A program made the position numbers and the translations under genes. From assembly GCA_003707065.3 (NCBI GenBank), contig PPXM03000010.1, positions 310,001 to 374,000 on the forward strand: a stretch of 64,000 nt of DNA, written 5' to 3'. Each line of letters begins with the position of its first letter. Within the stretch, counting starts at the first letter, position 1. Of this stretch, positions 31,265-64,000 are shown in pieces. Source of the DNA: Trigonopsis variabilis (Eukaryota; Ascomycota; Trigonopsidomycetes; Trigonopsidales; Trigonopsidaceae). The notes beneath the pieces are model-generated. The model was given only the letters and a program-made list of their open reading frames with translations. It ran no database searches and was not told the DNA's origin.

Positions 31265-31522
31265 TCCGGTAAACGAATATATCCAGTCAAGCTTGCCTTC
31301 TTGTCTTAATGCCGATGATAAAAACGGGCACCGTAATGCTTTTTTAACTCAAGTCCGTTTATCTGGTCGACATTTGTGTCTAGTTGGTATTTAGCAGTTT
31401 AACCGTTGATAGTAACGTTGAAGAGTTATCTGCGTATGTGCGATAAACGATTTAGCTGGCGAGATGGACCTGCCAATCCGAGATATAAACTTACTTGATT
31501 GCACACATTTTTAGGTACATTG

Positions 31523-45729: not shown

Positions 45730-47265
45730 TTATATGTAATAACGGAACCGCAGATCATTGGAATCAGTAATGTCACTGGAGGAGCCAGGCTTGATTACTT
45801 CGCCAAGAGCTCGGTCACGCCGTTTATTCTCAATTCGGAAATGGATTCCCAACGTCAGCGCACAGATAATCGCCATCCCTTGAAAAGCTCCGGTCAAGGC
45901 CAAGGCTTGAGTATACTGAGGAGCCCAAGCGTCTCGAAACATCTGGGCTGCGACAATGGATCCGATCGATGAGCATGCAACCATGCAACCAGTTACCATC
46001 GAGCGAGCACTGGGATCGGTCTTGATATTGTTATGCCACGTGTGTACTAGGGCGGACGGGATATACGTTCCCATGGAGAGCAAGAAACACCCAGCGTATG
46101 ATGCATGCTTCTGAGTGGTAGTGTCTAGAGCAGCCGTCATGATATAGCCCACCATAGTAAACATTAGGCCGCCAAACACGAGATGGAAGCAGCGCTCCTT
46201 GAAGAAATCCGAAGACTTTGTCACAAGGAGTAACCATGCACAGCCTGTCAGGTTGGGCGCCACAGTATGAAGGTTAGTCTGAACAGTGCTGTAGCCTAAA
46301 CGAGCAATAATTTGAGCAAGAAATGTACCAGTGGCCTTGGTGGCTGCTCCATATCCGATGCACATAAAGGCAAAGACGCCAATTTTCCAATCAACGAGAG
46401 CTTCAAGAGCGTGTTTGAAATCAAAGGAAGCATCGCTGCAACTATCGTTTTGCATACGAAGAGCAGCAACTTCTTTTTCCTTGGCCGAAAGCCATCGGCA
46501 CGTTTGCGGGCCACTTGGGAGGATAAAGATCGAAGCAAGACCTGTTCCGATACTTATGAGCCCTTCAATTATGAACAATATCTGCCAATTGTATTGGAAG
46601 ACACTATGCTTTATCTGGAATACCCCATAGGAAATCAGTCCGGTGAATGCCCCGGCAATACAGGCTGATCCGTAAAAGAACGCGGTTCTAAAGCCGCACT
46701 CATTTCGCTTATAGAACAAAGTCAGATAAAAGATGCAGCCTGAAAAAAAGCCCGCTTGGAATACAGCAATGATCATACGGCAAACAAATAGACCAGCATA
46801 ATTCTTAACAGCAACCTGACAAGTAGAGGCTAGGCCCCAGCCCATAATCAAAACGGGCAAGACGCGATTACCACCAAAATGGTGGACAGAATAAGTCACG
46901 ACCGGCTCCAAGAGCACAAAGGGAACGTCAAAAACTGTAATCATAGTGGAATATTGATTTCCGTGAAGCCCAAGATTCACATCGATCTTGTCTGTCTTTG
47001 CATTAGAGATATTGCCCCTTGTCATGAAGCAACAAAAATACATGAACGACAAAAGAGGTAAAATGGTGAAGTCTAGAAGAATGTTAGCTTTTAATTCTTT
47101 GCAATTCTTGCCGAGTTTGCGAACATAGCACTTCTCGATCTCTTTATCGATCACAGGAACATATTCAATCTCGCCGATAGATACTTGAAATTCCTTTGGG
47201 TCATCCATACTCTCGGATTTCTTGCTTTTAGGGATGCAGATGGTCGTCATCGTTCCTGGCAACAT
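45730..47265 (-). CDS. hxnP: MFS anion:cation symporter (Dal5/Tna1 type), HxnP-like
   Basis: Intronless, 511 aa, about 12 membrane segments. ACS-family features: the TRGNISNAKTDKIDVNLGL loop after TM1, QYSTMITVFDVPFVLLEP, the RMIIAVFQAGFFSGCIFYLTLFY stretch (~165-187) and the RNECGFRTAFFYG loop. Yeast Tna1 (nicotinate) and Dal5 (allantoate) belong here, and the Aspergillus nidulans hxn cluster contains such a carrier. Role inferred: uptake of nicotinate or a hydroxylated derivative. Its promoter, shared with the hxnY-like gene, has three CCCCAC boxes. Confidence 0.8.
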   Translation of the reverse strand: MLPGTMTTICIPKSKKSESMDDPKEFQVSIGEIEYVPVIDKEIEKCYVRKLGKNCKELKANILLDFTILPLLSFMYFCCFMTRGNISNAKTDKIDVNLGLHGNQYSTMITVFDVPFVLLEPVVTYSVHHFGGNRVLPVLIMGWGLASTCQVAVKNYAGLFVCRMIIAVFQAGFFSGCIFYLTLFYKRNECGFRTAFFYGSACIAGAFTGLISYGVFQIKHSVFQYNWQILFIIEGLISIGTGLASIFILPSGPQTCRWLSAKEKEVAALRMQNDSCSDASFDFKHALEALVDWKIGVFAFMCIGYGAATKATGTFLAQIIARLGYSTVQTNLHTVAPNLTGCAWLLLVTKSSDFFKERCFHLVFGGLMFTMVGYIMTAALDTTTQKHASYAGCFLLSMGTYIPSALVHTWHNNIKTDPSARSMVTGCMVACSSIGSIVAAQMFRDAWAPQYTQALALTGAFQGMAIICALTLGIHFRIENKRRDRALGEVIKPGSSSDITDSNDLRFRYYI

Positions 47266-47709
47266 TGGGCGTCTGCTTTCTCTATAAGTACTGCTGGTCT
47301 GAGAGATAATCTTATCGAGTGATGGCAGATTTGTATTGACAAGCTAATCGGAAGGTCATTTCTCGATGTTGATTTTGGATTATTCCCCACTGTTGGTTCT
47401 TTTGAGATAGCGTCAAACCGGCCTCAGTCGTCCCAAGTAACATGATAAACTGGGGATGCTTTCCCCCACCTTATCGCGATAAAGCATTATCCACCGTTAC
47501 ATACTCCACCCACTTTCGCGATGGGATACATTTTTTGGACACTGATAGCTCAAACGAGAAATGTCTTATCGCGTTAGCGCTTTCCCCCACTCATTGCCGC
47601 CAAATTATGCCTATTTGATATAATTCATCCCATAATAAGAAGAAGCAGTGTCCGTAAAGGAGCGATAGTTTATCCAACCAATTCGAAAACGCTGTTTAAT
47701 TGATCGAAA
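47266..47709. promoter_or_regulatory. divergent hxnP/hxnY-like promoter with CCCCAC and CGATAA boxes
   Basis: CCCCAC occurs at 47385-47390, 47464-47469 and 47585-47590. A perfect palindrome TTATCGCGATAA lies at 47471-47482 directly after the second box, and TTATCGCG at 47566-47573 precedes the third. The spacing of a CCCCAC box and a GATA-type (CGATAA) box recurs in other promoters of the cluster. Confidence 0.65.
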
Positions 47710-48780
47710 ATGTCTACAATGACCACGAATCAGCAAATTGACCTAGGTACCATGGGCGTTCGTAAATTCCAAGAACCTGCCGGTCCAATCTCTTTCCCTA
47801 GTGTCCCGATTATTGATTTTTCTGACGCGAGCAGCATCGATCTTGAGAAGAGAAGAAAGGTAGCTGAGAAACTGTTTGACGCCTGTACGAAAGTTGGCTT
47901 TTTCTACCTTAAAAATCATGGAGTGCCAAAAGAGCTTATTGCAAGAATCAAACAACAGACGAAGCGTTTTTTTCATGACCTTAACCCGGACCAAAAAATG
48001 GCTCTTGATATGGCCAAGAACCCGGAATATTTTGGTTATGCTCCTATAGCGACTCAGCTAGAAAATGGGAGTAAGAAGACTCGATTATTTGAGAGCGTGA
48101 ACTTCGGCTACGAAAGACGATTCGATGCAAACTACAAAGACGTTCCTCTTGAAAAAGAACTTGAAGCTCTGAATTTCTGGCCCGAGCAGTCAGAACTGCC
48201 TGGATTCGAAGATGATGTTGGAGAATACTTATCACAGATGCTGTCATTGAGTCGTCGGCTTTTGAATTCTTTTGCTTTGTCTCTCAACTTGAACGAGGAT
48301 TTTTTTAGCTCGGAATGTGACCATCCTGGAGTTATTCTGAAATTGAATCATTACCCACCGGCCTTGCCTGAAGACCCAAATTCCAACTCGGGGATCCACG
48401 CTCATACTGACCATGAGCTCTTTACTATATTGCTCCAGGACGATGTGAAATCCCTTGAGGTTGTTTCCGCTGATGGAACATGGATATCAGCAGATCCCAT
48501 AGATGACACGTTTGTCGTCAATATTGGAGATGCCATGTCTATGTGGACAAACGATATGTTTTTATCCACTCTTCATCGAGCTTATAACAAGGAAGGCAAG
48601 ACACGCTATTCCATCCCGTTTTTCTTTGGTGCTAACTATGAGGCCGTCATGGATACCCTTCCTTCTTGCGTTAACCAACTACGTCCCAAGAAATATCAAC
48701 CTGTTTCTGCTGGTGATCATGTTAGGTACAAAATGAAGTGGGCTTACGGCAAAGAGCTTGACTCCAAGACAGCTCTATAG
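47710..48780 (+). CDS. hxnY: 2-oxoglutarate/Fe(II) oxygenase, HxnY-like
   Basis: Intronless, 356 aa. IPNS-like dioxygenase: N-domain VPIIDFSDASS and GFFYLKNHGVPKEL; the iron triad HAHTDHELFTILLQ (HxD) and STLHRAYN (distal His); the 2-oxoglutarate clamp RYSIPFFFGAN (RxS). All catalytic residues present and length normal. The A. nidulans nicotinate cluster encodes an alpha-ketoglutarate dioxygenase (HxnY), and the gene neighbours here match that cluster. The precise substrate within nicotinate breakdown is not inferred. Confidence 0.85.
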   Translation: MSTMTTNQQIDLGTMGVRKFQEPAGPISFPSVPIIDFSDASSIDLEKRRKVAEKLFDACTKVGFFYLKNHGVPKELIARIKQQTKRFFHDLNPDQKMALDMAKNPEYFGYAPIATQLENGSKKTRLFESVNFGYERRFDANYKDVPLEKELEALNFWPEQSELPGFEDDVGEYLSQMLSLSRRLLNSFALSLNLNEDFFSSECDHPGVILKLNHYPPALPEDPNSNSGIHAHTDHELFTILLQDDVKSLEVVSADGTWISADPIDDTFVVNIGDAMSMWTNDMFLSTLHRAYNKEGKTRYSIPFFFGANYEAVMDTLPSCVNQLRPKKYQPVSAGDHVRYKMKWAYGKELDSKTAL

Positions 48781-49079
48781 CTGAAAGAGCAACGTCTTAC
48801 TAGATTATAATTTAACGACTTTACTCTTATTTAATGTAGATTTTTTACTGACTGCTGTGAATGCAGCCTAAATTAGAACCAAAACGGTCCCGCTGATCTC
48901 AAAGTTCTCTTAAGTAACATATTTCCTGAGTGAAATTAGAACAAAACAAATGATCAAGAGAAGCATTAAAACATCTTCAGTTGAATAATTCATGGACTCT
49001 AATTAATCTGAGAAAATGATTGTATTATGATAATATAAGACGCTTGTACTATTCAAATTCATGCGAAAATATACACCTC
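48781..49079. other. convergent intergenic region
   Basis: 299 bp of AT-rich sequence between hxnY- and hxnX-like genes, 3' ends only. Confidence 0.4.
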
Positions 49080-50372
49080 TTACTTTAAGCAGGTTTTGTA
49101 CCCATACAACCAATCGCCAAAAACTGGGTCCCTCCAGCTATTCGGATCCCCGTGAAAGAGGTCCTGCCTTGCCATAGATCTATCCCGAGCTAGCTGATCT
49201 AGCCCATCCTGCATATGAAAGATATGTCGATTTCTACTTGACAGATGCACGACTTTGGTAGTGCGAGGTTTTCGAAGACGTTCATATTCCATCAACTTCT
49301 CCGCTATGTCTTCTGTGCTCTTGATATCTCTGAAAAGGTCACCGAGAACGGCTCCATCTTCGACAGCCATACTAGCACCCTGTGAAAGATAGGGTAGTGT
49401 GGCATGAACAGCATCGCCCAATAGAGTGAAGATTCCTTTCGACCACGTCTGGCTCTCATCTCTAATGCAAAGCTTCCACTTGAGAACGCTAGGTATTAGG
49501 TCGAGAATCTTTCGCAGAATGGGGTCCCATTCTTTATATACGAGTCTCATCTCTTGAGCTTCTGCTGTAGCTCTGCGGGCCTCTGCAGGCATATCGTCTG
49601 GACATAATAAGACAACGTTATAAACGCCTTCGGTTCCTTCTTTTCGTTTGAGGTAGTATCCTACACAATGGCCCCCGGGACCAAGCCAGAAAGTAAGTGC
49701 CGGCGTTTTGATAAATCTTCATAGATCCGGGTCAGCTAACATTAAAGATTCGGGAATCAAGGCACGATAAGCAATATCACCAGTTGGATATGGCGGGGTG
49801 TCTTTTTCTCCAAGTACGAATTGGCGGCATTTTGAGTATAGACCATCAGCACCTACTAGGACTTGAGCGCTGTATTCTTCATCATTTTCGCATTTCACTA
49901 TGCCTTTAAGGATGTCGATATCATTTACCCGAGCACCTAGGATAATATCAACTCCCATCGACTTCGCTTTGTTTACTAGGATCTCATGATAATCTGCTCG
50001 ATGAATCTGAAGGTACGGACCTCCGTAGCGTTCACGAAAGTAAGGGTTTAGATTAATAGTAGACAGCAACTTTCCGTCTCTCCATCGAACCATTCGCTGT
50101 AAAACGGGCCTCGAGCTGACTGCCTCGACTTGTTCCAATAGACCCCATTTACGCAAAATATTTGTAGAATTAGGAGGGACTTGGATTCCTGCTCCCACCT
50201 GACAAGTTAGACAAGCAATGCATCATCGTACTTCTCCAAGCTCCTTGGAAGCTTCTAAAATTACAATTTTATGCCCATGGGAAGCTAGGGCAATAGCTGC
50301 TGCTAGACCCCCCAGCCCACAGCCTATTATGATGAACCTCAATTGTAAATTCGTTGTACTCTCAGCAGTCAT
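49080..50372 (-). pseudogene. hxnX: FAD monooxygenase, HxnX-like, with one in-frame TGA
   Basis: Exon 1 (50372-50232) gives the FAD motif IIGCGLGGLAAAIALASHG and ends ASKELGE. A 33-nt intron (GTACGA..TCTAAC..TCAG, 50199-50231) leads to exon 2 (50198-49080) with VGAGIQVPPNSTNILRKWGL, VGADGLYSKCRQF and the second FAD motif LLGDAVHATLPYLSQGASMA. Exon 2 stays in a single frame throughout, but codon ~207 is TGA (49721-49719), between SLMLADPDL and RFIKTPALTFWLGPGG. Family sequence continues normally past it. No GT-AG intron can remove it. Total 420 codons, the usual size of salicylate-hydroxylase-type enzymes. In A. nidulans HxnX converts 6-hydroxynicotinate to 2,5-dihydroxypyridine. Here the gene is broken, read through or mis-sequenced. 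Confidence 0.8.
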
Positions 50373-50923
50373 TGTAAACCCCTCCCATGACATCCTACCC
50401 CTTCATTATTAAACAGATTTGAGTGGGGATCAGAGTTGGGTACCGCTGATAACGATTCTGTGGTGGGGGAGAGGAGCATGGAGTATTGCCGATAGGGGAT
50501 TGCCTAGAGGCCATAATTACCTGACGATAGGGTTTGTTGCTGGTGCCAGTTAAAAACCTCGGAAAGTAAAGGTAAGTTTATGAATCAAGGCTCACTCATA
50601 ATCGTGCATAATATTCTGAATTCTGTTAAGAAATTCTTATCAAATCGAATATTACCTCTGTTGGTCCGCCTTGCTGATGCCTTAACCTGACAGTTAGGGT
50701 CAATTGCCATAAAGCTCCATCTCATGACGTTTCAAATAGCACAAGAAACTTTGTCAAATCCGAAAGCACGTCATATTTCTTGTCTATTTAGTTTGACAAG
50801 TGAGAGTGGGGAGGGTGAGGCTAATCAGATCCCTCATGAGCCCCCCACTTTAGACACCATGGGCCTATAAATTGTGAATCCAAGATCTGAACGGGGCACA
50901 CTCGTTGGATTTAGAGGACAGCT
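50373..50923. promoter_or_regulatory. divergent hxnX/hxnT-like promoter with four GTGGGG boxes
   Basis: GTGGGG (either strand) at 50423-50428, 50463-50468, 50806-50811 and 50843-50848, two near each gene start. CCGATAG near 50493 and TGATAA near 50448 are GATA-like. Confidence 0.65.
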
Positions 50924-52117
50924 ATGGTAAATGTGGATCCGACGTCGTCCATTTTGTTTACACCCATTAACTTCGGAGCCTTACATCTCAAGCACCGGAT
51001 TGTGATGGCTCCTCTGACTCGAATGCGGGCTTCAGAACTAATCCCAGCGTCAGGAGTTTATGTTCCAAATGACTTGAATGTAAAGTATTATGATCAAAGA
51101 GCGAGTCCTGGTGGATTATTGATTTCTGAGGCGTGTCCTATTTCTCGTACAGCTTGTGGATACGCTGGGGTTCCTGGGATCTTCACTAAAGAACAGATAT
51201 TAGGGTGGAAACGGGTTGCTGATGCCGTGCATGCCAAAGGCGGGATGATTGTGTGTCAACTTTGGCATGTCGGAAGAGCTACCGTGAATCCTTTAATTGA
51301 AGGAAAGGCTCCTTTATCAAGTACGGAAGTTCCTATCAAAGGACTTTGTCTTGATTGTTCGCCTTACGAGAAGTACCCTCCACGAGTAATGACTAAAGAA
51401 GATATTGAAGATATAACCCAAGACTTTGTCGACGCTGCCAGGGCTGCGATCAACGAAGCGAGATTCGACGCTGTCGAGGTCCACGGTGGAAATGGTTATT
51501 TGTTGGATCAGTTTCTTCATGACAACGTCAATACTCGAACTGATGAATACGGTGGAAAATCTTTCGCGAATCGTGCCCGCTTTCCTCTGCAAGTCCTCAA
51601 AGCAGTAATAGACGCTGTGGGTGCCGAAAGAGTGGGCATTCGCCTGTCGCCATTCAATTATTTTCAAGACACTCGAGATTCAAGTCCGGGTGATATGTGG
51701 CGTTTTCTGTGCGAGGAAATCACAAAGCTCGATAAAGCCATTGCCTACGTTCACATGATCGAGCCTCGCTTCGATGAGGTTTTATCTGAGGAACAGAAAC
51801 TCCGGGAAATAGAATCTTATACGTATCAGAAAAAGCCTTCTCTCGATCCGTTCCGTGAGTTCTTGCAAAATGCCAACATAAAATTTATCTCAGCAGGGGA
51901 CTTCAATTACGACTCAACAATTGAGAAGTTAAATAGCGGTAGGGCAGATGCCATTGCCTTTGGTAGACTGTTCATTTCGAACCCTGACCTGGTTGAAAGA
52001 TTTAGGCAAAACGTCCCTCTCTCTAAGTATGATCGGTCTACATTTTACGACGCGAAGCCTCCCGAAAATGGCTACACTACCTACCTAACGTACGAAGAGG
52101 TTACTAATACCAGCTAA
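50924..52117 (+). CDS. hxnT: old yellow enzyme-type flavin oxidoreductase, HxnT-like
   Basis: Intronless, 397 aa. OYE barrel with TPINFGALHLKHRIVMAPLT, VCQLWHVGRAT, the active-site segment VHGGNGYLLDQFLHDNVN (His/Asn substrate pair and Tyr proton donor) and TRTDEYGGKSFANRARF; FMN phosphate contacts SAGDFN and AIAFGRLFISNPDL. A full-length enzyme that reduces activated C=C bonds with NAD(P)H. The hxn cluster of A. nidulans includes such a flavin oxidoreductase (HxnT), consistent with reduction of a hydroxypyridine intermediate. Confidence 0.87.
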   Translation: MVNVDPTSSILFTPINFGALHLKHRIVMAPLTRMRASELIPASGVYVPNDLNVKYYDQRASPGGLLISEACPISRTACGYAGVPGIFTKEQILGWKRVADAVHAKGGMIVCQLWHVGRATVNPLIEGKAPLSSTEVPIKGLCLDCSPYEKYPPRVMTKEDIEDITQDFVDAARAAINEARFDAVEVHGGNGYLLDQFLHDNVNTRTDEYGGKSFANRARFPLQVLKAVIDAVGAERVGIRLSPFNYFQDTRDSSPGDMWRFLCEEITKLDKAIAYVHMIEPRFDEVLSEEQKLREIESYTYQKKPSLDPFREFLQNANIKFISAGDFNYDSTIEKLNSGRADAIAFGRLFISNPDLVERFRQNVPLSKYDRSTFYDAKPPENGYTTYLTYEEVTNTS

Positions 52118-52409
52118 TTATGAAAGTGTATTTCACTAAATAATGATAGCTGTATAGTTTTACCCGTAAACACCCGCAATGGAAAGTTCTATTAGTTCCT
52201 AAATTTAAAAAAAAGATATTGATATTTGTCAGACGCTCGCAGTAGCGATTCTCGTAAAACCAGCTTCTAAACGAAACCACTCGAGCATGCTTATTTGGAG
52301 AGCCACCACAAGCCGCATACAAAATGCCTTATGCGAAGGGTAATGTTCCTAGATTATGATCGCTTTCAAGTAGTAAAAACGAAAATGCCTTCCTTAATCA
52401 CTACAGATT
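52118..52409. other. convergent intergenic region
   Basis: 292 bp between the OYE gene and the regulator gene, no feature seen. Confidence 0.4.
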
Positions 52410-55023
52410 TCAAGTCCCTCTATACCCCGCCGGTGTGATCAATGTTCTCAGAACTTTCTGTCCTTCGAACACGAGCGCCCAGCGAATAGTACTGAGATGG
52501 TCAGAGATAGCAGAAATAAGTCGCTCGGTACGATATTTGGCCGAGATATTTCGACAATGATCCGGAGGCGCGTTTGTAATCATGAGCAAAAGCTCACCCA
52601 TAGCCGCAGAGAGATCAGAGACGGGACCACAATAGCTCTCACCTGGATTTCTCGATAATCTTTCACCGGTCTGCCCATCCTGATCAATAGAATAGGAAGA
52701 ACTGTTTTCGCCCAGAATATTATAGAAGCTCCAGCATGTAAGTGTGGCCAGGTACAGGCACCAAGGATAATGGAACGAGCCATCAGCCTCCCAGTCATCC
52801 AAGTTCGTCAGTCCCTCACGCAACAAATAAGCCGCATGCCAGACAGATTTCTCAGAGCTTCCCAACTTACGAGCCCACTCGGCAAGCGCATGGCACGACC
52901 TCTCATAGTCAACCTTTGTGACTTGTCGGCCAAGAATATGTTTCGCTCCAGCATATATCTGGACATCTATCAGGTTTGTCCATAAAATAATGTTTGCAGA
53001 GTGATATATGGCAGTCACTGAAGTCATATACTTGATAAATGTCCTTCGTGAGCGCATGTCGGAGAGTTCGGCCATCAAGGAATGGGAAAACTGATCAAAC
53101 TCATCTTTCCATCTTTCTAACGCCCGCACGAGCTTGGTCTTCCAAACTGAACTGTCATGCATTCCCAGAGACGTCTCGTCCCTGCGATTCATATCCCAAT
53201 GAATGGCCATGATGCCGTGGAGCATAAGGTGTAAACCCAGGCTGTTTAGCTGGGGGATTTCAGAGCAGTCATTCAGATAGCGCTTTAATGCAGGTAGGAA
53301 TAGAACCTCAGTCGGAAGCGTTTCGCGGAGTTTAAGCCACTCTTGAGCGGTAAAAGCGTTCCAAAGATTATCATAGCAAGGTAAAGGCAATCGCAGCTCG
53401 AATGCTGACATACATAAGGACTGAGAGAATAAGGTAGCATGCTGGACATCCCATATAAAGGCTAAAAATGCAAGCCGTTTCTTCGATTCAGCTAATACCC
53501 AGGCTCTCCATTCTTCTTCGAGATCTATTATCTCCTTAATGCGTCGAAACTTTGGAAAGGACGTTTGACAACCGCTGCGGCGGATCAAGTTAATCAAAAG
53601 TCCATGAAAAAGATGTGCAATATCATGCTGTTTCATTCCTGCGCGGCACTTGCCAAAAACCTCGATCAGTAAAACAGTTTGAAGGACCCAAAGCTCAGGT
53701 GCGGCGTGAAAATAAGAAGAACTAAATAAGATACCCCGTAAGACATCATGAATTCGAACAGCCATTTGGTGGGCATCCTTACTGGCATAACTTGCCCCAA
53801 GCAAAAGCATAGAGAGCAAGAGCAATCGAGGAGGTTCAGACAAGTTGAACGTTGGACGGTGAATCAACGGGTAGGTTTCATTGAATCGAGTGAAAAACAA
53901 TTCCAGATAGTTCTGGAGATTCTCTAGTGAAAGAAGTTGGCTCTCAGGCGAGATCGCTACTCCTTTCTCATCATCCGATGTCGCTTCCACAATAAGCTCA
54001 ATTATCTCGTGACGAGTAATTTCATCAATCTTGGGCCCTGCCACTTGTCTCTGGGGCTTTGTGCGATATATCCAAGACTTGAGTATCGACGTCCCCGGGG
54101 AGGCCAAAGCGTCTTTATTCTGTTGGGGCAGGGATTTCGGTCTCGTCTGCTCATCGGGTTCCCGTCTGCTGGAGATAGAGTCGTTCGTACTGCCCGATGT
54201 CGAATGATTATGTCCTTGCGAGGATGTAGAGTAGCTCGAAACGGGAGACACAGTCCTAGAAGGCATGGAGTAGTGTCTAGAATCTGTCATGGCCTGATGT
54301 TCTCCATTGGCCTTGCCAAACTCGTCAAATATCCAATTGTAATTCTGAAGTGTAGAGTAGGGCATATTAAAAGAATGTGCGAAGTCAGGAGCAAACTCGT
54401 CTTCAAATAATAACCTAGTATCTTGGAAATCTAAGGCTGGCAAGTCACTACCTAGAAGAAGATCGTCTTGAATGAGGAAAAATTCGGAAAATTCCAAGTT
54501 GTTGCCTTCATCTGAGGTCCTTGATCTTTTTGTTGAGCCATTGAGTGGAAGGTTTTCGGCAGGGACTCGTTTTCGGACGGTGGACTGCTCAGAGGATGAA
54601 TCAGAGCCGGCTATGACACTATGTGGGGGTGATAGAGGCTCTATGTGAGCATCATTCGATTTCCTAGAAGGCCGATCACCATTTGAAGTCACAGAATCGA
54701 CTTTATCTCCTTGGAGAGTAAGGACGATCTTCCCTTCTGGCAGGCCTTGTTTACGAGTACCTAGCACACCAAGTCCCTCACCCCCAGCTTCTAGGTCCTT
54801 TTGCGCATGTCTTTTAAGATGTCGTTCTAACAGCCGTCAGTATTTGTCGTGTTCAACCAATTCTCTTACCAAGTAGATCTTCCCGGCTGAAGCATGCCTT
54901 GCAACGCTGGCATACGAAAACGGTATTTCCGTGGTTCTTTTTATGACGTTCTAAATGCTCTTTCCTGGTGAATTGCCGACCACAGCCGGGTGCCACACAA
55001 ACAAATTGGCGCCTTTTTGGCAT
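52410..55023 (-). CDS. hxnR: C2H2 plus fungal_trans regulator, HxnR-like
   Basis: Exon 1 (55023-54870) and exon 2 (54826-52410) give 856 aa; the 43-nt intron (GTAAGA..ACTGAC..TTAG) splits finger 2. Finger 1, C-x4-C-x12-H-x3-H, has helix RKEHLER. Finger 2, C-x2-C-x12-H-x3-H, has helix REDLLER. The pair resembles Adr1 fingers. Residues ~280-700 are the fungal-specific middle homology region, including FFTRFNETYPLIHRPTF and LLLSMLLLGASYASKD. A Ser-rich linker lies between. In A. nidulans HxnR is the pathway-specific activator of all hxn genes. The finger residues predict a GNG-GGG site, the hexamer enriched in neighbouring promoters; two copies lie upstream of this gene, suggesting autoregulation. 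Confidence 0.85.
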
Positions 55024-55257
55024 GCTCGACGATGTCTGTCTAATGCTCACTTCACGATGTCTTTAGGAAATCGTACTATCAGCTTTATCTAGAGTGGGGC
55101 ATTTATCTGATGCGACCAAAAGTGATGGGCCAGCGTGGGGAGGATGGTCTTGCCGACCAATAGATAAGCAGCCGCCAATGAGCAAAGCACGATGATTGTA
55201 ACGGGACTACAAAAATAGGAATTATACCGATATAGGCAGTCAGATTGAAGTGTTCGT
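55024..55257. promoter_or_regulatory. hxnR-like promoter with two GTGGGG boxes
   Basis: GTGGGG at 55094-55099 (as AGAGTGGGGC, followed by TTTATC) and 55135-55140, 70-120 bp upstream of the regulator ATG. Confidence 0.6.
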
Positions 55258-57243
55258 CTAAATACAGGCAACTTCCTGTCTTGGAATCTCGGCTGGGGAG
55301 GCCAAAATAGGAGAAAAGTACTCAGCGACATGAACCGCTGCTCTCTCCCCAGCCTCAGCTGATAAGTCATAGCCCTCAACGGTACCCACATATCCGTCGG
55401 GACGCACAATCATAATCATCGCCTGATCGTTCAGGTCTCCATTAGCCCATTTTTTGTATGCAGCGTCTTGTGAATTTTTATGGCTGTCGACATAGACGGT
55501 CCATCGGTGCGCGCGGTAAAGCTCCGGGAGATCTGCAAGCTCGAATTCATCCCTGGTTGATGAACAAACAAGTGCTTGAGTCAGAACTCTGTTCCTAGAG
55601 ATATATCTATTTGGAAGAATGTAAGCATCGGCAGGATCAAATTTTCCATCAGAAGGCGCAATGATATCCAATCGCTCAGTCAAAGAGTACGGCCCCGTCA
55701 ACTTCTTGCTGAAGGCTTGCAAGAACACCATGGATTCATGGATTTCTCGCACCACGACATAGAGTCTGAAATTGTTCACCATAGGAATGTCAATTTGTAG
55801 ATCAACAAGAGAGTCATCAGAAAATCTAATTGCTTTTGCCGGGAGGAGAAGCTGTCCAGGGACTTGTCTAAAAGATGGCTTTGTTCTGCTCACGTTCAAC
55901 GTGTTAAGAGAATATTCAGCTCCAAGACCAGAGATGAAGCGTATATTTTTATTCGCATTAGCAGCTAATGCTTTATGGTCACCGCTGGTGAACGCTTTTG
56001 CGTGCTCATGGTCAAAATTAATCAAGTCCTGGGCAATTTTTCTTCGTTCCTGTTCATATGTGGAGAGTATAGAACTCCGAGTGTATCCGTGAACCACCAT
56101 GGCGATTTTCCACGCAAGGTTCCAACTGTCATGTATCGAGGTATTCATCCCCTGGGCGGCCTTAGGAGAATGAGTGTGGCTCGCATCACCGACGATAAAG
56201 ACACGCAAATGGTCACTAAACTTATTGGCGACTCGCTGTCCAATTCGATAGACTCCAAACCACTCGACGCTTTTCCAACGAAGCTTGTATGGCGCCATGA
56301 TAACCCTGGCTCTCGACATCACAAAGTTCCGGGCTTCATCAGATGGTTGAGTAAATGAGTCGTCCGGTAATTGAATGTAAAACCTCGTCATATCACGCTC
56401 GCGAGGGATAACCATGATCGTCCCCTCATTTTTAGTATGAATAGCACTAGTATTAGACCAGGTAGACCATCAAGGAACCTACCATTTGCTCCACAGATCT
56501 GGAAACTCAGTATCTAAGACTCCATCCAACACGCCCCAGTACTCATCTGTCGTTTCTCCTTCAAGTGACGTTCCGGGCATCGATTTTCGAACATTAGAGT
56601 GTGCACCATCAGCTCCAACAAGGTACTTGGAGACAATGTTGAAAGTCCTTCCAGTATTTCGATCAACTAATTGCGAAAGAACGGGATACCGCTCATTAGG
56701 TCGCCACTTGTACGAATTGAATGAAGCGTTCCGCACCACTGATAGACCCCGCTGCTCCATGTCTTCCAGTAGTATGCTTTCTATCATCCCCTGGTGTACG
56801 AGAAGAATATAAGGCTCGAGAAGATCAAGATCATCCGGGAAATGATCCTGTCGCTGAGTTCGGACGAGAGTTTCAGACTCTGGAGACCGCTCCCAGAAGG
56901 CGAAATCGTTAATTTTGGCTCCTTTCCATAGTAATTCATAGCCCAAGCGAAGTTGTTTTAATGTTTCAATTGTCTTGGGCTGGATGCCATCGGCGCGACC
57001 GGTTGATGTTCTATCAGGTCGGTCATCGACAATTAGCGTTTGAACGCCATAGCGCTGCAAAACGGTGCTAATGTAAGATAAGATAAGATTATTATAGACA
57101 GATGCAAACACTCACGCAAGCATCAGTCCCGCTGGTCCAGCGCCTGATATTAACACATCGGTGTGAACGCATTCCAAGTTGGATGCGCCATCAGTTGAAG
57201 ACGTGCTGGAAGTAGACGACAGCTCTCTTAAAGCTCTTTTCAT
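55258..57243 (-). CDS. hxnV: phenol 2-monooxygenase-type FAD hydroxylase, HxnV-like
   Basis: Three exons (57243-57116, 57067-56483, 56446-55258), 633 aa; introns 48 nt (GTGAGT..ATTAG) and 36 nt (GTAGGT..TCTAAT..TAG). Spliced motifs: LISGAGPAGLMLATVLQRYG (FAD GxGxxG), GRADGIQPKTIETL, LVGADGAHSNVRK, SKCAIHTKNEGTIMVIPRERD, and FIVGDASHTHSPKAAQGMN (ribityl contact). A thioredoxin-like C-terminal domain ends with VRPDGYVGTVEGY. The first ATG gives a 30-residue Ser/Thr leader. In A. nidulans HxnV acts on a dihydroxypyridine-derived intermediate; that assignment here is by cluster content. Confidence 0.88.
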
Positions 57244-57645
57244 GAATGACTCAAGCCTAAAGTTTGCACTTTATTAGATCTTATATTCGACATTTCAGAA
57301 TGAGCAAGAGTGCTTTCTGGGTTGTTCCCCACTCTCGATAAGAGAATGGGGAAAAACTGTCTGGGGCGGCTATGCAGAATGGAGACGATGCAGTTGAAGC
57401 CTTGCTCATACTTTTTGGCATATCCTCGATGAAAAATAGCACCGAAAGAAAGAGAAAGCCCTAGTTGCTTCAAATGCGTGCTTACCGGTCGTATAGAGAC
57501 ATTAATGGCCTGATATCATTTATATCTCAATGGAAAGTGCCCAAAAGCGTCCAGCATGATGGCCAGATCAGTTTTCATACTCTACGATGGCTTAAATGTT
57601 CAGACAAATAGATTTATTTCGCAGCCAGTATTTCTAGATGGCCTT
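57244..57645. promoter_or_regulatory. hxnV-like promoter with palindromic CCCCAC element
   Basis: CCCCAC at 57327-57332 lies in an imperfect 12-bp inverted repeat (57325-57336 and 57342-57353, one mismatch) whose centre is CGATAA. A GTGGGG-like and a GATA-like site are thus combined in one dyad, ~85 bp upstream of the ATG. Confidence 0.6.
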
Positions 57646-58494
57646 TTACCATACAGTCACCCCACCGTCAACACGTATATCCTGTCCGGTAATGTAAGAA
57701 CTAGCATCTGATGCAAGAAAAACGCAAGTACCAGCCATATCGATTGGCTGAGCTACACGACCATTCATAGCTTCGGCATTCCATTCTTCAACCAGCTCAG
57801 GAAAAGGTGCAGTCATCTCCGTCAGGACGTATCCGGGGCTCACAGAATTGACTCGTATACCCTTTATGTCAACTCAGTAGGTACCTCTACTATATACTCA
57901 CGTACTTGCTCATCTCAGCAGCAATAGGTGGAACCATTGAGCGAATAGAGCCTTTAGTTGCGCAGTATGCACTAGACTTCTGTGACCTGATGGCTATGAA
58001 CGATCCCATGCTTGCGACAAATATTAGGCTTCCCTTAGTAGTCTTATTCATTATCATTTGCTTCGCGCATTTCTGAGCAAAAAAGTAAGCTCCTTTCACA
58101 TTGATTCCGAAAAGCGATTCAAAGTCCCGGTAGGTGGTATCTAAGAACCCGATGTTCTTATTGATACCGGCACATGGAACACAAATATCTAGTCGTCCAT
58201 TGAAATCTCTGACAAACTTTTTAAAGCATTCTTCCATGGCTAGCATATCGCTCACGTCGACCCTATTTAATCAGATAAAGTGCCCTCCTTCGATTCTTGC
58301 ACTCACTGGTAAAACCCAATTCTCACATTAGCTGTATTTTCGAACGCTCCAAACTCGTCCGACTTATCGATAATATCAAACACTGCAACATCGGCTCCTG
58401 CCTTGGCCAGGCCTTGCACAAATCCGAATCCGATACCTCGGCCTCCTCCTGTAACAGCAGCAGTCCTTCCCGACAGATTAAATAACTTCATCAT
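57646..58494 (-). CDS. hxnW: short-chain dehydrogenase/reductase, HxnW-like
   Basis: Three exons (58494-58307, 58262-57902, 57861-57646), 254 aa; introns 44 nt (GTGAGT..CTGATTAAATAG) and 40 nt (GTGAGT..TTGACATAAAG). Classical [15 protein letters not shown] cofactor loop, CVPCAGI, catalytic Ser in FVASMGSF and YCATKGS (YxxxK), [14 protein letters not shown] and [11 protein letters not shown]. Asp after the second strand (VAVFDII) favours NAD(H). The fungal nicotinate pathway uses a ketoreductase/dehydrogenase (HxnW) on a piperidinone intermediate. Confidence 0.88.
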
Positions 58495-58742
58495 GTTGTC
58501 AGTAAAGAAACAATCAGAGGCTCGACTGCGACCATAATTTCACTTACCAGCTCTTCCATTAGTGAGGCTTCAAAATAGTGAGTCAAGGTGGGTGCTGGGT
58601 CCTTTTTACCCTTTCCCCCACTCTGCGATAGTCCTTATCAATTATCAGTCCCTGTCGCACTAGGGCAGTCCAACGCATTTAAAGCTCGGCTAGAATGCAT
58701 GCACGTAATGCACAAGTCTTCTAACAGTCAACTAAGTCCAAA
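58495..58742. promoter_or_regulatory. divergent hxnW/hxnM-like promoter
   Basis: 248 bp. CCCCAC at 58616-58621, followed by TCTGCGATAG and CTTATC, repeats the box pairing of the other cluster promoters. Confidence 0.6.
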
Positions 58743-59855
58743 ATGGTTAAAAAACGTGGGTAGAAAGTCCTGGTTTGGGTCTCACATCAAGGTGTCCTTT
58801 GCTGCTATGGGGTTGATATTGATGCTGTAGCTGGTTGGCTAGGTTCTTATGGAGGTGCTGACTCTACAAATGACATTTCGAGGGGTAATAGTTGTTCGGT
58901 GTCGCAATTCTGACATCCAGGTCTTTGGGCGGGACATTATGGTGTTCGCCGTATGCTAAGAATGTTTGATAAGTATGGAATTAAGGCCACTTGGTTTATT
59001 CCAGGGCACTCATTGGAAACTTTTCCTGAAGAGTGCGCTATGATTCGCGATCAGGGACACGAAATGTGAGTGGTAGAGTTTGGGATAATTCTTACTTTGA
59101 GTGGCTTGCATGGATATTCCCATGAAAATCCTTCGGAAATGACTATCAAGCAGCAAAAAGCTGTGCTGGACAAAACGTACCAGTTGCTAACTGAGTTCTG
59201 CGGTAAGCCGCCTAGGGGTTCAGTTGCTCCTTGGTGGGAGACTTCTGAAGAAGGTGCTCAACTCCTTTTAAGTTATGGCATTAAATATGATCATTCCATG
59301 AGTCATCATGACTGTCAACCGTACTGGCTCCGCATTGGCGATACGTGGACAAAGATAGATTACACAAAGAAGGCCGAAGAATGGATGAAGCCACTAATTA
59401 GAGGAAGGCCAACGGGTCTTGTGGAGATTCCTGGGTCCTGGTATATCGATGATCTACCTCCTATGGTAACTTCAAGCGCGAATATCCTGTGATCTAACTG
59501 GCTAGATGTTTATTAAGAATAACCCAAACTCCCATGGTTGGGTAAATCCACGCGATATTGAAGATATCTGGAAAGACCACTTTGACTATTATTATAGGGA
59601 ATTTGATGAGTTTATCTTCCCAATCACTTGTCATCCAGACGTTTCTGGTCGGCCGCACGTTCTTTTGATGCAAGAGCGGTAGGTAAACATAATAAAGACT
59701 CAAAGCTTACTGTGAGGATTATTGAATATATCAACTCTCACGAAGGTGTATCGTGGATGACTATGGAAGAAATCGCTAATGATTTCAAAAACCGCTCCAG
59801 CCCTGAACCGGGAGCATTGATGCCTGCTTCGCCTGGTGCGGTTCTCAACCAGTAG
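58743..59855 (+). CDS. hxnM: polysaccharide-deacetylase-fold cyclic imide hydrolase, HxnM-like
   Basis: Six exons: 58743-58755, 58792-58884, 58921-59065, 59102-59465, 59506-59678, 59717-59855, 308 aa. The five introns are 36, 36, 36, 40 and 38 nt, all GT-AG; all were needed to restore [54 protein letters not shown] (metal His pair), [11 protein letters not shown] and [14 protein letters not shown]. The family includes HpPgdA and bacterial cyclic imide hydrolases. In A. nidulans HxnM opens the ring of 3-hydroxypiperidine-2,6-dione. No signal peptide, which argues against chitin deacetylation and for a cytosolic imide substrate. Confidence 0.88.
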
Positions 59856-60277: not shown

Positions 60278-62299
60278 TCAAATAACTTCCGCTCCTGGTA
60301 ATGGTCTTATCAAGAATGGAGCTCTGTCGTTCTCGATTTTGCACTTTAAGTAGTTAGCATTGGGATTCGAATAGGCTGTAGCTTCTTACACTTACCTGCT
60401 CCAAAAGTTTTGATGGGTATTTCATATCAGAATTCTCCAAACCAACGGCGAACTGCATCATCATTCCTGCATTCATATGCCACAATATATGGCAATGAAA
60501 CGCCCAAACTCCGGGGTTATCCGCAACGAAACGCAATACGGCACTTCCATACCTGGAGATACTATAAGTATCACGATACACTGGATTGTCTGTCTTATAA
60601 TGTTGGACACGGTCGGGAGTCCAATCTCCCACGCCTAAGATGACGCCTCTCCTGAGATCTGTAATTTTATGATCCAGAACCCAGAACTTATGGCCATGCT
60701 GAAATCAGATACTTAGAAAGAAAGAAAAAAACTTACAAGATGAAATGGATGGGTAGAGTCATCTTGATTGTTCACGATCAGCTCCACGACCGCTCCACAA
60801 GGAATGTCCACAATCACTTGGTGTCCTCCCCAAACTGGGGTGTTCGGTAGGCCATTGACCGTCGGCCGCTTTATACATGCCGATCCATTGATGAGACCAA
60901 GAGCGACTGGAAGGTTGGCCCCTCCAAGAGCTGGCAGCCACGATGTTCCATTTACAAAAGAAAATGGAGCTTCATCGGCATGCTGCAGCTCTTGAGTCTT
61001 CATCATCACAACCACTCTTATATCTGGTTCAGGAACTTGATGACTTTTGACTGGGACCACGAGAGAATCGTCGAGATTCAGGCACATGTTAGGAGACAGT
61101 GTATCAGTCCAAGCTATGGAAGAAGGAAGCAAATTATTCTCCCCTCGCGAGGAGGAGGTTGTTATAAGTCTTATAAAGTTCCTTAATCTCTCTTGTGTTG
61201 AGTCTTGATATTTTACAATAGCTTTCACTTCCGGATCTAATTCTGAATTTGAGTGAGTGAAACATGCTGTGTTCATTGAAGCACGCATATAGTAAAGTTT
61301 CTGATCTTGGTCTGCTTCAACTAGGACAGAGTACCTCTGGCCGGGTGCAATTGGTAGATAATGCACGTCAGTACGCTGTATCTCGGTTGAATCAGCCTCA
61401 ATCACTGATAGCAGATGCGAATCGATAGAAAAGGAATAGTCAGCGAACGAAGATACGTTTATTATTCGAAGGCGGTACCTTCTACCTTTTCTAAACATGA
61501 ACTTAGCATACTCAGAAGTGTTGGACATGCATTTGACCTTGATTTTGGGATCAATCACTCGGTCACAATCAAATACATTCTGGCCGTTGATGAGACCGTT
61601 ATCCGGAGTGGGCTTGGAAGTTAGCCTGAAGAAAAGCCTTCATACCTCGAATCCACCGCTTGCTCGTGACAAATACCAATCTATGATAGAAAGACCCGAA
61701 CTATGATAATGGTCTGATAGTAACACAGTAATCTCTTCGTCGTATGAATTTTTTCTCAGGCTATAAACTTCCTCTTGACCTCCTGTTACAATTAAGGCAC
61801 CATATACGCCGTCTGCGCGCTGAGTTCCTACATGAGAATGCCACCAAAATGTTCCAGAGTCGGTCAGGTTAAAGGTATAAGTGAATGAGTGCCCAGGCGG
61901 AATCCCACATTGAGTCACTGATGCGGCACCATCCATGTAGTTCGCATTCAGCTGTCTTATTCCATGCCAGTGAATTGTGGTAGATTCATTATTTTTCAAC
62001 CTGTTTTCCACTGTAATCTCTAAAAGATCACCGACGTTGGCCCGAATTGTAGGTCCGGGAAATTGTCCGTTGACCAGAACCATATCTTTAGACACCCCAT
62101 CAGGAGCGAAAGAGTGATGATCAATCACCCAATGTTGGCGGTGAACTTGAAATGAGTGATTTGCTGTCAGGATACTTGATTTGGCGAAATTGAAGTCTGA
62201 AATGCCAAAGAATGTTACCAAAGTGGTAATTGTAAAAATGACAATCGCAATAAACTGCACTTTGACTTTCCTCGGAAGGACTGACCACTGTGGAGGCAT
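60278..62299 (-). CDS. multicopper oxidase, laccase/ferroxidase type, signal-anchored
   Basis: Four exons (62299-61646, 61612-60737, 60698-60396, 60343-60278), 632 aa; introns 33, 38 and 52 nt, all phase 0 with GTATGA, GTAAGT and GTAAGT donors. All four copper motifs are present: HWHGIRQ, WWHSHVG, HPFHLHGHKFW (restored by the second splice) and WAFHCHILWHMNAGM. Met in the last motif fits the axial ligand position. The last intron gives the tail CKIENDRAPFLIRPLPG instead of an unrelated one. A single hydrophobic helix (residues ~15-36) without small-residue cleavage pattern suggests a type II membrane anchor or uncleaved signal. Oxidises phenols or Fe(II) outside the cytosol. No GTGGGG box was noticed upstream, so it is probably not part of the hxn-like regulon. 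Confidence 0.88.
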
Positions 62300-64000
62300 T
62301 TTATATAGAAGAAAAATTGCACGTGCGCTAAAGGAAAGAGTACTAATCTACTCAAATATTCCAGCAGTAGTAGTAGATATATATCACCTGCAGCAATGAA
62401 TGAGAGCAATAGAAAGCTAATTGGTAGATAACTTTGCTCGATGGTGAGGCAAAAGACTTATTCCGTAAGTAATAATATCTATTACTTCAGTAGCCCCTGG
62501 AAGCTTCAGCTAAAAATATTATATATAATGGTAAGCCGCATTGTTCAATGCTAACCTTTACAGACAAAATCTGTAAGATCTTGATATCCAAATTGGCATA
62601 GCTGGTGGTAATATATGTCTTGTGGACGTGAAACTCCACATTGGAAACTAGGAACACGGATCACGACGGTAATTCAACGATATCTGGTCATTCGATATTT
62701 TTGTGATCTCCAAGACATATTTGGGTTGAGATAAGACTTCTGTACCAAGAATAAAATTTATAGCACATTTCTACTTCTCATTTTCTGCCATGCGAGCGAC
62801 ATCCCTGTAACACCCACGTTCCATGAATTTATATCGTCGGTTCCCGACCCTATTAGGAACAACACTCTCTCTAAACTGAATCTAAGGACTCCTTATTCAA
62901 GTCAAATGCGATGGCCGTCTTGATGGGCCTTAGACGTATCTATTAGGAACAGCAATCCTTCTGCCTGCCCTCTGCCTGCGTTAATGGCTGTCATTTTATC
63001 TTTTTTATCATTATGTCCTGCGTAATACTGTTCTTATTTAGCCATCATCTATACATCGTACATATTCTCAACTGAGACGATTTCTATGTACTGTTTAGAA
63101 TTCCTAATCTAGCGAGCTTCTAATCGTTACACGTTAGTCTGCACTGAGGTTGTTCTTCACTCATTTCATGAGCAATAGATGGACACGAAGGAAGTTTTCT
63201 TCCTTTCTCGATCTTACCTTGGAAAATCACAGCTTAATTTGAGAATACCATAGTGTCCTTCTGGAAGATAATTTCCAGTTCGGCATAGCCTGCTTACTCC
63301 CAGAACTCTAGGGAGCAGTAAAGTTACTGCCTTCTCCCAGCGAACAAGCTAGGGGAGAAAGAAACTAGCAGCGTACTAATAGCATTATTAGGGGAATATA
63401 GGGAAAATGAGCCCCATGTTGCTGGCACCAGAGACCCTTTCCTCATATCCTATAGCTATCGTCATCTTGTGCTCAGGTCATCGTATAAATAAATGCAGTA
63501 CTTGGGATCCGTTGGTTGCACGTAGGAACTCCCAAAAAAAACACTATCTTACTTTTATCCCACATTTGAGAGTGGTTCAACTTTTTAAGTAGGTTGAACA
63601 TCAACTCGAAATGAATCAGTGAAAAGGAAGCTTTCGTCAGTTCCACCGTAACTAGGACAAAGATATTTCCTAGAATATCTTCTATTGGAGAAAATCACAC
63701 GGTATGTCACCCCTACAACGAGAATAAAAGCTCACTTGTATCGTTCGTCTCGTCGATACTGCGAAAAGGAAATTATTCCTTAATAGGAAGTAAGGCACTG
63801 AGTTCTTCCCAACAATACATCTTCATAAAAATGGGCTTCACCTGGTATGCTTTTGAAGGAGCTATCACGAGATCAGAATCCCGTGATTTTGCTGTCTTTA
63901 CTAAAAAAAAAAGTTTAGAAAAAAGTGAAGCTTCTATTAAGAGCTCCTGATACATGGTTTATCTAAGATGTAACTAATAAGAAATATGATATTGAGGTGC
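62300..64000. other. 1.7-kb terminal region without genes
   Basis: Upstream side of the oxidase gene, with a TATATAT stretch near 62380. A short CTATTAGGAACA direct repeat occurs near 62848 and 62940. No supported gene to the window end. Confidence 0.5.

What the first reader, a model, noticed from the sequence alone, without database searches (positions are those of the whole stretch)
47385..58621. GTGGGG boxes in the hxn-like promoters match the contact residues of the cluster's own regulator
GTGGGG/CCCCAC occurs at 47385, 47464, 47585, 50423, 50463, 50806, 50843, 55094, 55135, 57327 and 58616: eleven copies in about 1.9 kb of promoter, where well under one would be expected by chance at this base composition. 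The regulator's finger 1 helix (R-K-E-H-L-E-R) has Arg/His/Arg at -1/3/6, which reads GGG. Finger 2 (R-E-D-L-L-E-R) has Arg/Leu/Arg, which reads GNG. Fingers bind antiparallel, so the predicted site is GNG-GGG, exactly the observed hexamer. This gives a cis-trans pairing readable from sequence alone.
Basis: partly seen in the sequence, partly recalled or inferred. Interest (0 to 1): 0.85.

Follow-up and report, generated by a model that had tools for sequence, protein, structure and literature searches.

The report
Repeated regulator-binding boxes in nicotinate genes
A short DNA word repeats before every gene start that could be fixed in a fungal vitamin-breakdown gene cluster and fits the DNA-reading parts of the cluster's own regulator; such a site was already predicted in a related fungus, so this is solid support for a known idea rather than a new kind of thing.

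Summary
All eleven GTGGGG boxes are where stated, in five promoters (about 1.9 kb) of an hxn (nicotinate catabolism) cluster in an unnamed 11.35-Mb fungal genome. About 0.4 are expected (P about 1e-12), and GTGGGG ranks first of 2,080 hexamers. Two further copies in the span are coding and look like background. Ten of eleven boxes lie 51-122 bp upstream of an ATG; each of seven genes with a fixed start has one. Flanks are partly shared (AGA-GTGGGG-RANA), and GATA sites are about twofold enriched. The regulator's fingers carry Arg-His-Arg and Arg-Leu-Arg, as do 87 of 88 relatives with a readable finger pair. Best reading: HxnR activation sites, autoregulation included. Limits: Bokor et al. 2021 already predicted an HxnR site 5'GHGGGG by the same kind of reasoning and mapped it on A. 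nidulans hxn promoters, without binding data. Nor is the pairing unique: a second protein of this genome has the same contact residues, a CreA/Mig1-like one nearly so, and a sugar-transporter promoter elsewhere has four GTGGGG words without these flanks. In the hxn promoters other CreA/Mig1 variants are not enriched. Binding is untested. New member of a known kind.

The parts
47385..47390 (-). GTGGGG box, 120 bp upstream of the hxnP-like ATG taken (47265)
47464..47469 (-). GTGGGG box inside the hxnP/hxnY divergent promoter (199 and 241 bp from the ATGs), next to GATAAG
47585..47590 (-). GTGGGG box, 120 bp upstream of the hxnY-like ATG
50423..50428 (+). GTGGGG box, 51 bp upstream of the hxnX-like ATG
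50463..50468 (+). GTGGGG box, 91 bp upstream of the hxnX-like ATG
50806..50811 (+). GTGGGG box, 113 bp upstream of the hxnT-like ATG
50843..50848 (-). GTGGGG box, 76 bp upstream of the hxnT-like ATG
55094..55099 (+). GTGGGG box, 71 bp upstream of the hxnR ATG (possible autoregulation); TATC 5' of it
55135..55140 (+). GTGGGG box, 112 bp upstream of the hxnR ATG
57327..57332 (-). GTGGGG box, 84 bp upstream of the hxnV-like ATG; TATC 5' of it
58616..58621 (-). GTGGGG box, 122 bp upstream of the hxnW-like ATG; TATC 5' of it
54623..54628 (+). GTGGGG inside the hxnR coding frame, without the shared flanks; taken as background
57660..57665 (-). GTGGGG inside the last codons of the hxnW-like gene, without the shared flanks; taken as background
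45730..47265 (-). MFS transporter, hxnP-like (start ATG 47265 or 47250)
   Evidence: PF07690; divergent from the 2OG oxygenase as hxnP/hxnY
47710..48780 (+). 2OG-Fe(II) oxygenase, hxnY-like
   Evidence: PF14226 + PF03171
49080..50372 (-). FAD monooxygenase, hxnX-like (with intron, not modelled in full)
   Evidence: PF01494, weak in both pieces; matches 6-hydroxynicotinate 3-monooxygenase chains 8uiq and 5eow below other monooxygenases
50924..52117 (+). old yellow enzyme, hxnT-like
   Evidence: PF00724
52410..55023 (-). HxnR-like regulator, 856 aa; exon 1 54870-55023 with finger 1 and most of finger 2, intron 54827-54869
55258..57243 (-). phenol hydroxylase-like FAD monooxygenase, hxnV-like (with introns, not modelled in full)
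   Evidence: PF01494 + PF07976
57646..58494 (-). short-chain dehydrogenase, hxnW-like (with introns; start ATG 58494 or 58491)
   Evidence: PF13561/PF00106; end
58743..59855 (+). polysaccharide deacetylase-family gene, hxnM-like (with introns; start uncertain)
   Evidence: PF01522 on 59070-59492; sequence

Best explanation
The boxes are upstream activating sites of the nicotinate-catabolism regulon, read by the cluster's own two-finger factor HxnR. Finger 1 (Arg/His/Arg) sits on the 3' GGG and finger 2 (Arg/Leu/Arg) on the 5' GTG. One or two boxes 51-122 bp upstream of each ATG recruit HxnR when the pathway's inducer is present. The two boxes in front of hxnR give positive autoregulation, and neighbouring GATA sites admit an AreA-type nitrogen regulator. 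Shown here: the boxes, their excess, position and flanks, and the finger residues. Inferred: binding, activation, induction and GATA co-control, by analogy with A. nidulans.
For: GTGGGG: 11 in 1.9 kb of promoter against about 0.4 expected, first of 2,080 hexamers. Ten of 11 boxes lie 51-122 bp upstream of one of seven ATGs, a band covering 27% of these promoters, binomial P = 1.8e-5 (the band was chosen after seeing the data). Flanks outside the hexamer are shared and separate the boxes, each promoter held out in turn, from 25 background copies (Mann-Whitney P = 1.2e-4; the background was scored with the matrix of all eleven), while the promoters share no long similarity (best exact match 13 bp). 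Finger contacts RHR/RLR are kept in 87 of 88 relatives with a readable finger pair (120 examined of 249 found). HGATAR sites 21 against 9.3. A. nidulans hxn genes depend on HxnR and AreA, and an HxnR site GHGGGG was predicted there.
Against: No binding or expression data. A second protein of the genome has the same contact residues. The relaxed consensus GNGGDG proposed for A. nidulans is not enriched once GTGGGG is set aside (8 against 6.2). The word is not confined to the cluster: AGAGTGGGG occurs 41 times in the genome, four of them here, with 48 for the reversed control; GAGTGGGGRRA 14 times, two here, control 10. Close pairs of boxes exceed the reversed control genome-wide (direct 23 against 8; divergent 12 places against 4; convergent 4 against 2), so other clustered sites exist, partly in a repeat, one of them four boxes before a sugar transporter. 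Control segments reach the held-out score of three of the five promoters. The relatives were not sorted into HxnR and Klf1-type by a tree.
Confidence: 0.78

Rival explanations
1. The boxes are carbon-catabolite repression sites for a CreA/Mig1-type repressor, whose consensus SYGGGG (CreA: SYGGRG, recalled) includes GTGGGG.
For: Mig1 consensus SYGGGG is listed in PMC3897899 (passages). The genome encodes a protein with RHR/RER fingers of CreA/Mig1 look (the family name is recalled). A sugar transporter promoter elsewhere has four GTGGGG and two CTGGGG in 291 bp, as such a repressor might want.
Against: In the hxn promoters only the GTGGGG variant is enriched: SYGGGG without it 2 against 1.14 expected, SYGGRG without it 3 against 4.1; GCGGGG 0, CCGGGG 0, CTGGGG 2 against 0.6. 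The four boxes of the sugar transporter lack the hxn flanks. The word 'CreA' does not occur in the main texts of the two A. nidulans hxn papers searched for it.
Confidence: 0.08
2. The boxes are bound by another C2H2 factor with the same contact residues, such as the Fungal_trans protein at C5:854874, with or without HxnR.
For: That protein has RLEHLSR and REDLLNR, contacts RHR/RLR, identical to HxnR, and the same domain plan (PF04082 E 4.3e-49). Close pairs of GTGGGG exceed the reversed control genome-wide.
Against: The boxes are concentrated at the genes of the HxnR pathway, including hxnR itself. The hxn cluster holds two of the 23 direct pairs and one of the four convergent pairs of the genome.
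Confidence: 0.12
3. The excess is a chance or compositional effect, or the result of promoter duplication, without regulatory meaning.
For: Window-wide the word is at chance level (20 against 17.0); the finding was picked out after looking.
Against: P about 1e-12 with a margin for 2,080 hexamers, noncoding control at the genomic rate, no long similarity between the promoters, regular distance to the ATGs.
Confidence: 0.02

Closest known systems
HxnR regulon of Aspergillus nidulans with predicted site 5'GHGGGG (Bokor et al. 2021, PMC8478523; passages seen)
   Same: Two C2H2 fingers plus Fungal_trans domain; predicted GNGGGG-type site; sites in the promoters of pathway genes and of hxnR; HGATAR sites alongside; hxnP/hxnY divergent pair.
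   Different: Here the genome is small (11.35 Mb) and the recognised genes sit in one cluster; its one xanthine-dehydrogenase-type gene (the class of hxnS) lies on another contig; only the T variant is enriched, and the excess is tested statistically.
Adr1/Mxr1-type two-finger C2H2 activators (Adr1 TTGGRG, Mxr1 CYCCNY in PMC3897899, passages seen; ADR1 structure 2adr)
   Same: The two-finger domain matches ADR1 chain 2adr (E 1e-8), though many other C2H2 chains score higher; recalled ADR1 finger residues RHR/RLR agree.
   Different: The published Adr1 site TTGGRG is absent from these promoters (0 against 2.2 expected); different pathway.
Klf1 of Schizosaccharomyces pombe
   Same: Named in PMC5746545 (passage) as the closest characterised factor to HxnR in architecture and sequence.
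   Different: Klf1 serves long-term quiescence; no binding-site comparison was made here.
CreA/Mig1 repressors
   Same: Consensus SYGGGG includes GTGGGG; finger 1 contacts alike.
   Different: Other variants of the consensus are not enriched here; finger 2 of the CreA/Mig1-like protein is RER, not RLR.

Membership tests
HxnR-type regulator | Two N-terminal C2H2 fingers | tested here: met
   Finger 1 over the PF00096 cut-off; finger 2 complete after splicing.
HxnR-type regulator | Fungal_trans domain PF04082 | tested here: met
   E 2.2e-45.
HxnR-type regulator | Orthology to named HxnR rather than to Klf1-type paralogues | tested here: inconclusive
   249 relatives, best 120 listed, 7,991 candidates scored; P0101, P0109 and P0119 are named nicotinate catabolism cluster-specific factor (34-36% identity), P0027 and P0040 are named klf1. 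No tree was built.
HxnR-type regulator | Linked to hxn enzyme genes | tested here: met
   P, Y, X, T, V, W and M-like genes by domain. HxnR and HxnV relatives have near-consecutive locus tags in Stylonectria, Zasmidium, Capronia and Neodothiora. Orthology of the enzymes not tested by trees.
HxnR-type regulator | Required for induction by a nicotinate derivative | not testable with these tools
   Stated for A. nidulans in the abstracts; no data for this organism.
HxnR binding site (5'GHGGGG) | Hexamer enriched in the promoters of the regulon | tested here: met
   GHGGGG 12 against 1.11, all but one being GTGGGG.
HxnR binding site (5'GHGGGG) | Physical binding by HxnR | not testable with these tools
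   Not determined in A. nidulans either, by the words of the 2021 paper.
CreA/Mig1 site | The SYGGGG variants serve as sites | tested here: not met
   SYGGGG without GTGGGG 2 against 1.14.
Adr1 site | TTGGRG | tested here: not met
   0 against 2.19 expected.

The most novel reading that the evidence does not exclude
The boxes are part of a longer composite element, roughly TATC-(4-5 bases)-GTGGGG with purines after it, often in pairs about 40 bp apart, in which HxnR and a GATA factor bind side by side. If so, the extended sequence and spacing, not the hexamer, would make this cluster's promoters specific against other proteins with the same finger contacts.
Probability: 0.2. Interest if true: 0.5.

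Novelty: new member of a known kind. Interest (0 to 1): 0.4.

Why it matters
Pathway-specific fungal regulators of the C2H2 type are said to be few (PMC5746545, passage), and in the papers seen no HxnR site has been shown by experiment. Eleven sharply defined boxes at fixed distances give clean probes for that test, narrow the published GHGGGG to GTGGGG with shared flanks, and pose the question how HxnR is told apart from a second protein with the same contact residues.

Tried and rejected
CreA/Mig1 and Adr1 sites as the explanation: variants not enriched. STRE (AGGGG): 3 against 1.6. Relaxed GNGGDG: not enriched without GTGGGG. Paired boxes about 40 bp apart: three of six spacings within promoters fall in 37-41 bp, P = 0.015 for any such 5-bp band, kept only as a hint. 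GATA within 10 bp 5' of the box: 4 of 11, P = 0.026 against random positions in the same promoters, a hint; TATCN{2,6}AGTGGGG occurs 15 times in the genome, three here, with 14 for the reversed control. GTGGGGNNNNGTGGGG: two in the genome, none in the cluster, control three. Other dense places: at C3:930539-930633 three boxes lie between the 3' ends of two long open frames that face each other, so not an evident promoter; at C1:1430008 four boxes lie 92-234 bp upstream of the first ATG of a sugar-transporter frame without the hxn flanks; not pursued further. Boxes 5.8 kb beyond the window end (L069:5837 and 5870) largely lack the shared flanks. Orthologous hxn promoters of other fungi could not be fetched: viral, genome (bacterial and archaeal), phage, plasmid and E. 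coli collections are not fungal and were not searched, and metagenome contigs had no scans. The Adr1/GTGGGG literature search gave one paper, unrelated by title. Dropped rows: 32 of 120 relatives had no finger pair found by the pattern in the first 250 residues and are left out of 87 of 88; the exception is P0038, RRR/RLR. No structure prediction or fold search was run.
Full report
What was checked. The window is bases 310001-374000 of contig C10 of an unnamed 11.35-Mb genome in 15 contigs. All eleven GTGGGG/CCCCAC places exist. The window has 20 copies in all against 17.0 in dinucleotide shuffles, so the excess is local: 13 of 20 lie in 47385-58621.

The genes. By Pfam domain the promoters belong to an MFS transporter, a 2OG-Fe(II) oxygenase, an FAD monooxygenase, an old yellow enzyme, a Fungal_trans regulator, a phenol-hydroxylase-like monooxygenase, a short-chain dehydrogenase and a polysaccharide-deacetylase-family protein. 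I read these as hxnP, Y, X, T, R, V, W and M. For P, Y, R, T, X, V and W the domains were matched to passages of PMC8478523 and PMC9304392. For M the match of the deacetylase family to the cyclic imide hydrolase is recalled. PMC8478523 says that Saccharomycotina hxn clusters always include hxnR and never hxnS, hxnZ or hxnN (passage). A genome search for the molybdenum-cofactor domain PF02738 of xanthine-dehydrogenase-type enzymes gave one match, on contig C2, so no hxnS is in the window; whether that single enzyme is HxA or HxnS was not tested. hxnZ and hxnN were not searched for. The hxnX piece matches 6-hydroxynicotinate 3-monooxygenase chains, though other monooxygenases score higher. HxnR and HxnV relatives have near-consecutive locus tags in several fungi: G7046_g400/g399, PRZ48_007421/007424, M409DRAFT_63963/63966, A1O3_08403/08400, AAFC00_007104/007099. 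Orthology was not tested by trees, and the organism was not identified.

Is it more than chance? The five promoters total about 1.9 kb. The genome has 2,375 copies, giving 0.39 expected and P(>=11) = 6e-13. GTGGGG is the top hexamer of 2,080 by excess over 103 kb of control DNA, so a correction for 2,080 words leaves about 1e-9. In 37.3 kb of control DNA without long open frames there are 8 copies, about the same rate as in frames (17 in 74.7 kb). In the 30 loci cut around C2H2 fingers, some of which overlap, there are 21 copies in 92 kb.

Which word exactly? GTGGGG 11 against 0.42; the other GNGGGG words 2 against 0.96; SYGGGG without GTGGGG 2 against 1.14; SYGGRG without GTGGGG 3 against 4.1; GNGGDG without GTGGGG 8 against 6.2; TTGGRG 0 against 2.2; all 18 single-base variants together 12 against 8.9. 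So the site is GTGGGG, narrower than the published GHGGGG, and not the wider CreA/Mig1 or Adr1 family of words.

Position and flanks. Distances from box to ATG: hxnP 120; hxnY 120; hxnX 51 and 91; hxnT 113 and 76; hxnR 71 and 112; hxnV 84; hxnW 122; the eleventh box (47464) lies 199 and 241 bp from hxnP and hxnY. For hxnP and hxnW a second ATG 15 or 3 bp downstream is possible. The start of the hxnM-like gene could not be fixed. Ten of 11 in the 51-122 band, which covers 27% of the promoter positions, has a binomial P of 1.8e-5, with the band chosen after the fact. Flanks favour A at -3 (8 of 11), G at -2 (7), A at -1 (8), R at +1 (10), A at +2 (7) and A at +4 (8). The flank information exceeds all 5,000 random draws from the same promoters, and held-out boxes score above 25 background copies, P = 1.2e-4. 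With the full matrix, trained on the other four promoters, P4 and P5 beat every control segment (0 of 272 and 0 of 438), while P1, P2 and P3 are reached by 2 of 248, 3 of 202 and 5 of 473 segments. The promoters are not copies of each other: the best shared exact stretch is 13 bp and includes a box.

GATA sites. HGATAR: 21 against 9.3 expected from control noncoding DNA, P = 6e-4, present in all five promoters. Three boxes have TATC 4-5 bp upstream of GTGGGG (TATCTAGAGTGGGG, TATCGAGAGTGGGG, TATCGCAGAGTGGGG), three of 15 such arrangements in the genome, where the reversed control has 14. The test for GATA near the boxes is weak (P = 0.026).

The regulator. Splicing a 43-nt intron gives an 856-aa protein with fingers RKEHLER and REDLLER. 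Of 249 relatives the best 120 are listed; 88 of these have a finger pair readable by my pattern and 87 of the 88 have RHR/RLR; 32 do not show the pair in the first 250 residues. It leaves the second base open, so T is an addition from the promoters, not a prediction of the code.

What else could bind? A search for C2H2 fingers in the genome gave 71 matches, 30 of which were cut as loci; contact residues were read from those. One further protein, at C5:854874, has RLEHLSR and REDLLNR, the same contacts as HxnR, and a Fungal_trans domain. One at C1:1060251 has RHR/RER and looks like CreA/Mig1 (name recalled). Other intron-split finger pairs may have been missed. So contact residues alone do not single out HxnR; the location of the boxes does.

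Where else are such boxes? Close pairs (gap 20-50) exceed the reversed control in the whole genome: direct 23 against 8, divergent 12 places against 4, convergent 4 against 2. Two direct and one convergent pair are in the hxn cluster; four of the divergent places are copies of one 35-bp repeat. One place outside, before a sugar transporter, has four boxes within 143 bp, with other flanks.

What is known. Bokor et al. 2021 (PMC8478523; passages) predicted 5'GHGGGG for HxnR with a zinc-finger predictor, proposed GNGGDG as relaxed form, mapped both with HGATAR on the hxn promoters of A. nidulans including that of hxnR, and wrote that the sites have not been determined by experiment. A. nidulans hxn genes are co-regulated by HxnR and AreA (PMC5746545, abstract and passages). 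Searches for HxnR and for GHGGGG in the held library showed no later binding study among the titles listed; 10 of the 22 papers holding the letters GHGGGG were listed, and apart from PMC8478523 their titles concern other subjects. The finding is therefore a second instance of a published prediction, in another fungus, with a statistical test and a narrower word.

Verdict. Observation confirmed. Interpretation partly supported: very likely HxnR sites, but known in kind, not unique by residues, and not shown by binding.

Noticed in passing
G000:C5:854874-855072 (locus L018): A second two-finger C2H2 plus Fungal_trans protein with the same contact residues (RHR/RLR) as HxnR; its fingers are split by an intron.
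   Followed up: partly
47266-58742: HGATAR sites are about twofold enriched in the five promoters, 9 of 21 of them in the hxnP/hxnY promoter.
   Followed up: partly
50423-50468, 50806-50848, 55094-55140: Three pairs of boxes 37-41 bp apart, two direct and one inverted.
   Followed up: partly
G000:C1:1430008-1430150 (locus L055, 1501-1643): Four GTGGGG boxes within 143 bp upstream of a sugar-transporter frame (PF00083), without the hxn flanks; a possible target of another C2H2 factor.
   Followed up: partly
G000:C1:17595, C1:496973, C3:152283, C3:799658: A nearly identical 35-bp stretch with two inverted GTGGGG words occurs at four places of the genome, probably a repeat family.
   Followed up: no
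G000:C2:1465207-1465908: The only PF02738 (xanthine-dehydrogenase type) match of the genome, in a frame of 1,400 codons, not linked to the hxn cluster.
   Followed up: no
61640-62347: Multicopper oxidase (Cu-oxidase_3) frame next to the hxn cluster.
   Followed up: no
29585-31348: Cytosine/purine/allantoin-type permease (PF02133) about 14 kb from the cluster.
   Followed up: no
58743-58790: The start of the hxnM-like gene is unclear: an in-frame stop follows the likely ATG after six codons, so a short first exon and intron are probable (sequence).
   Followed up: partly
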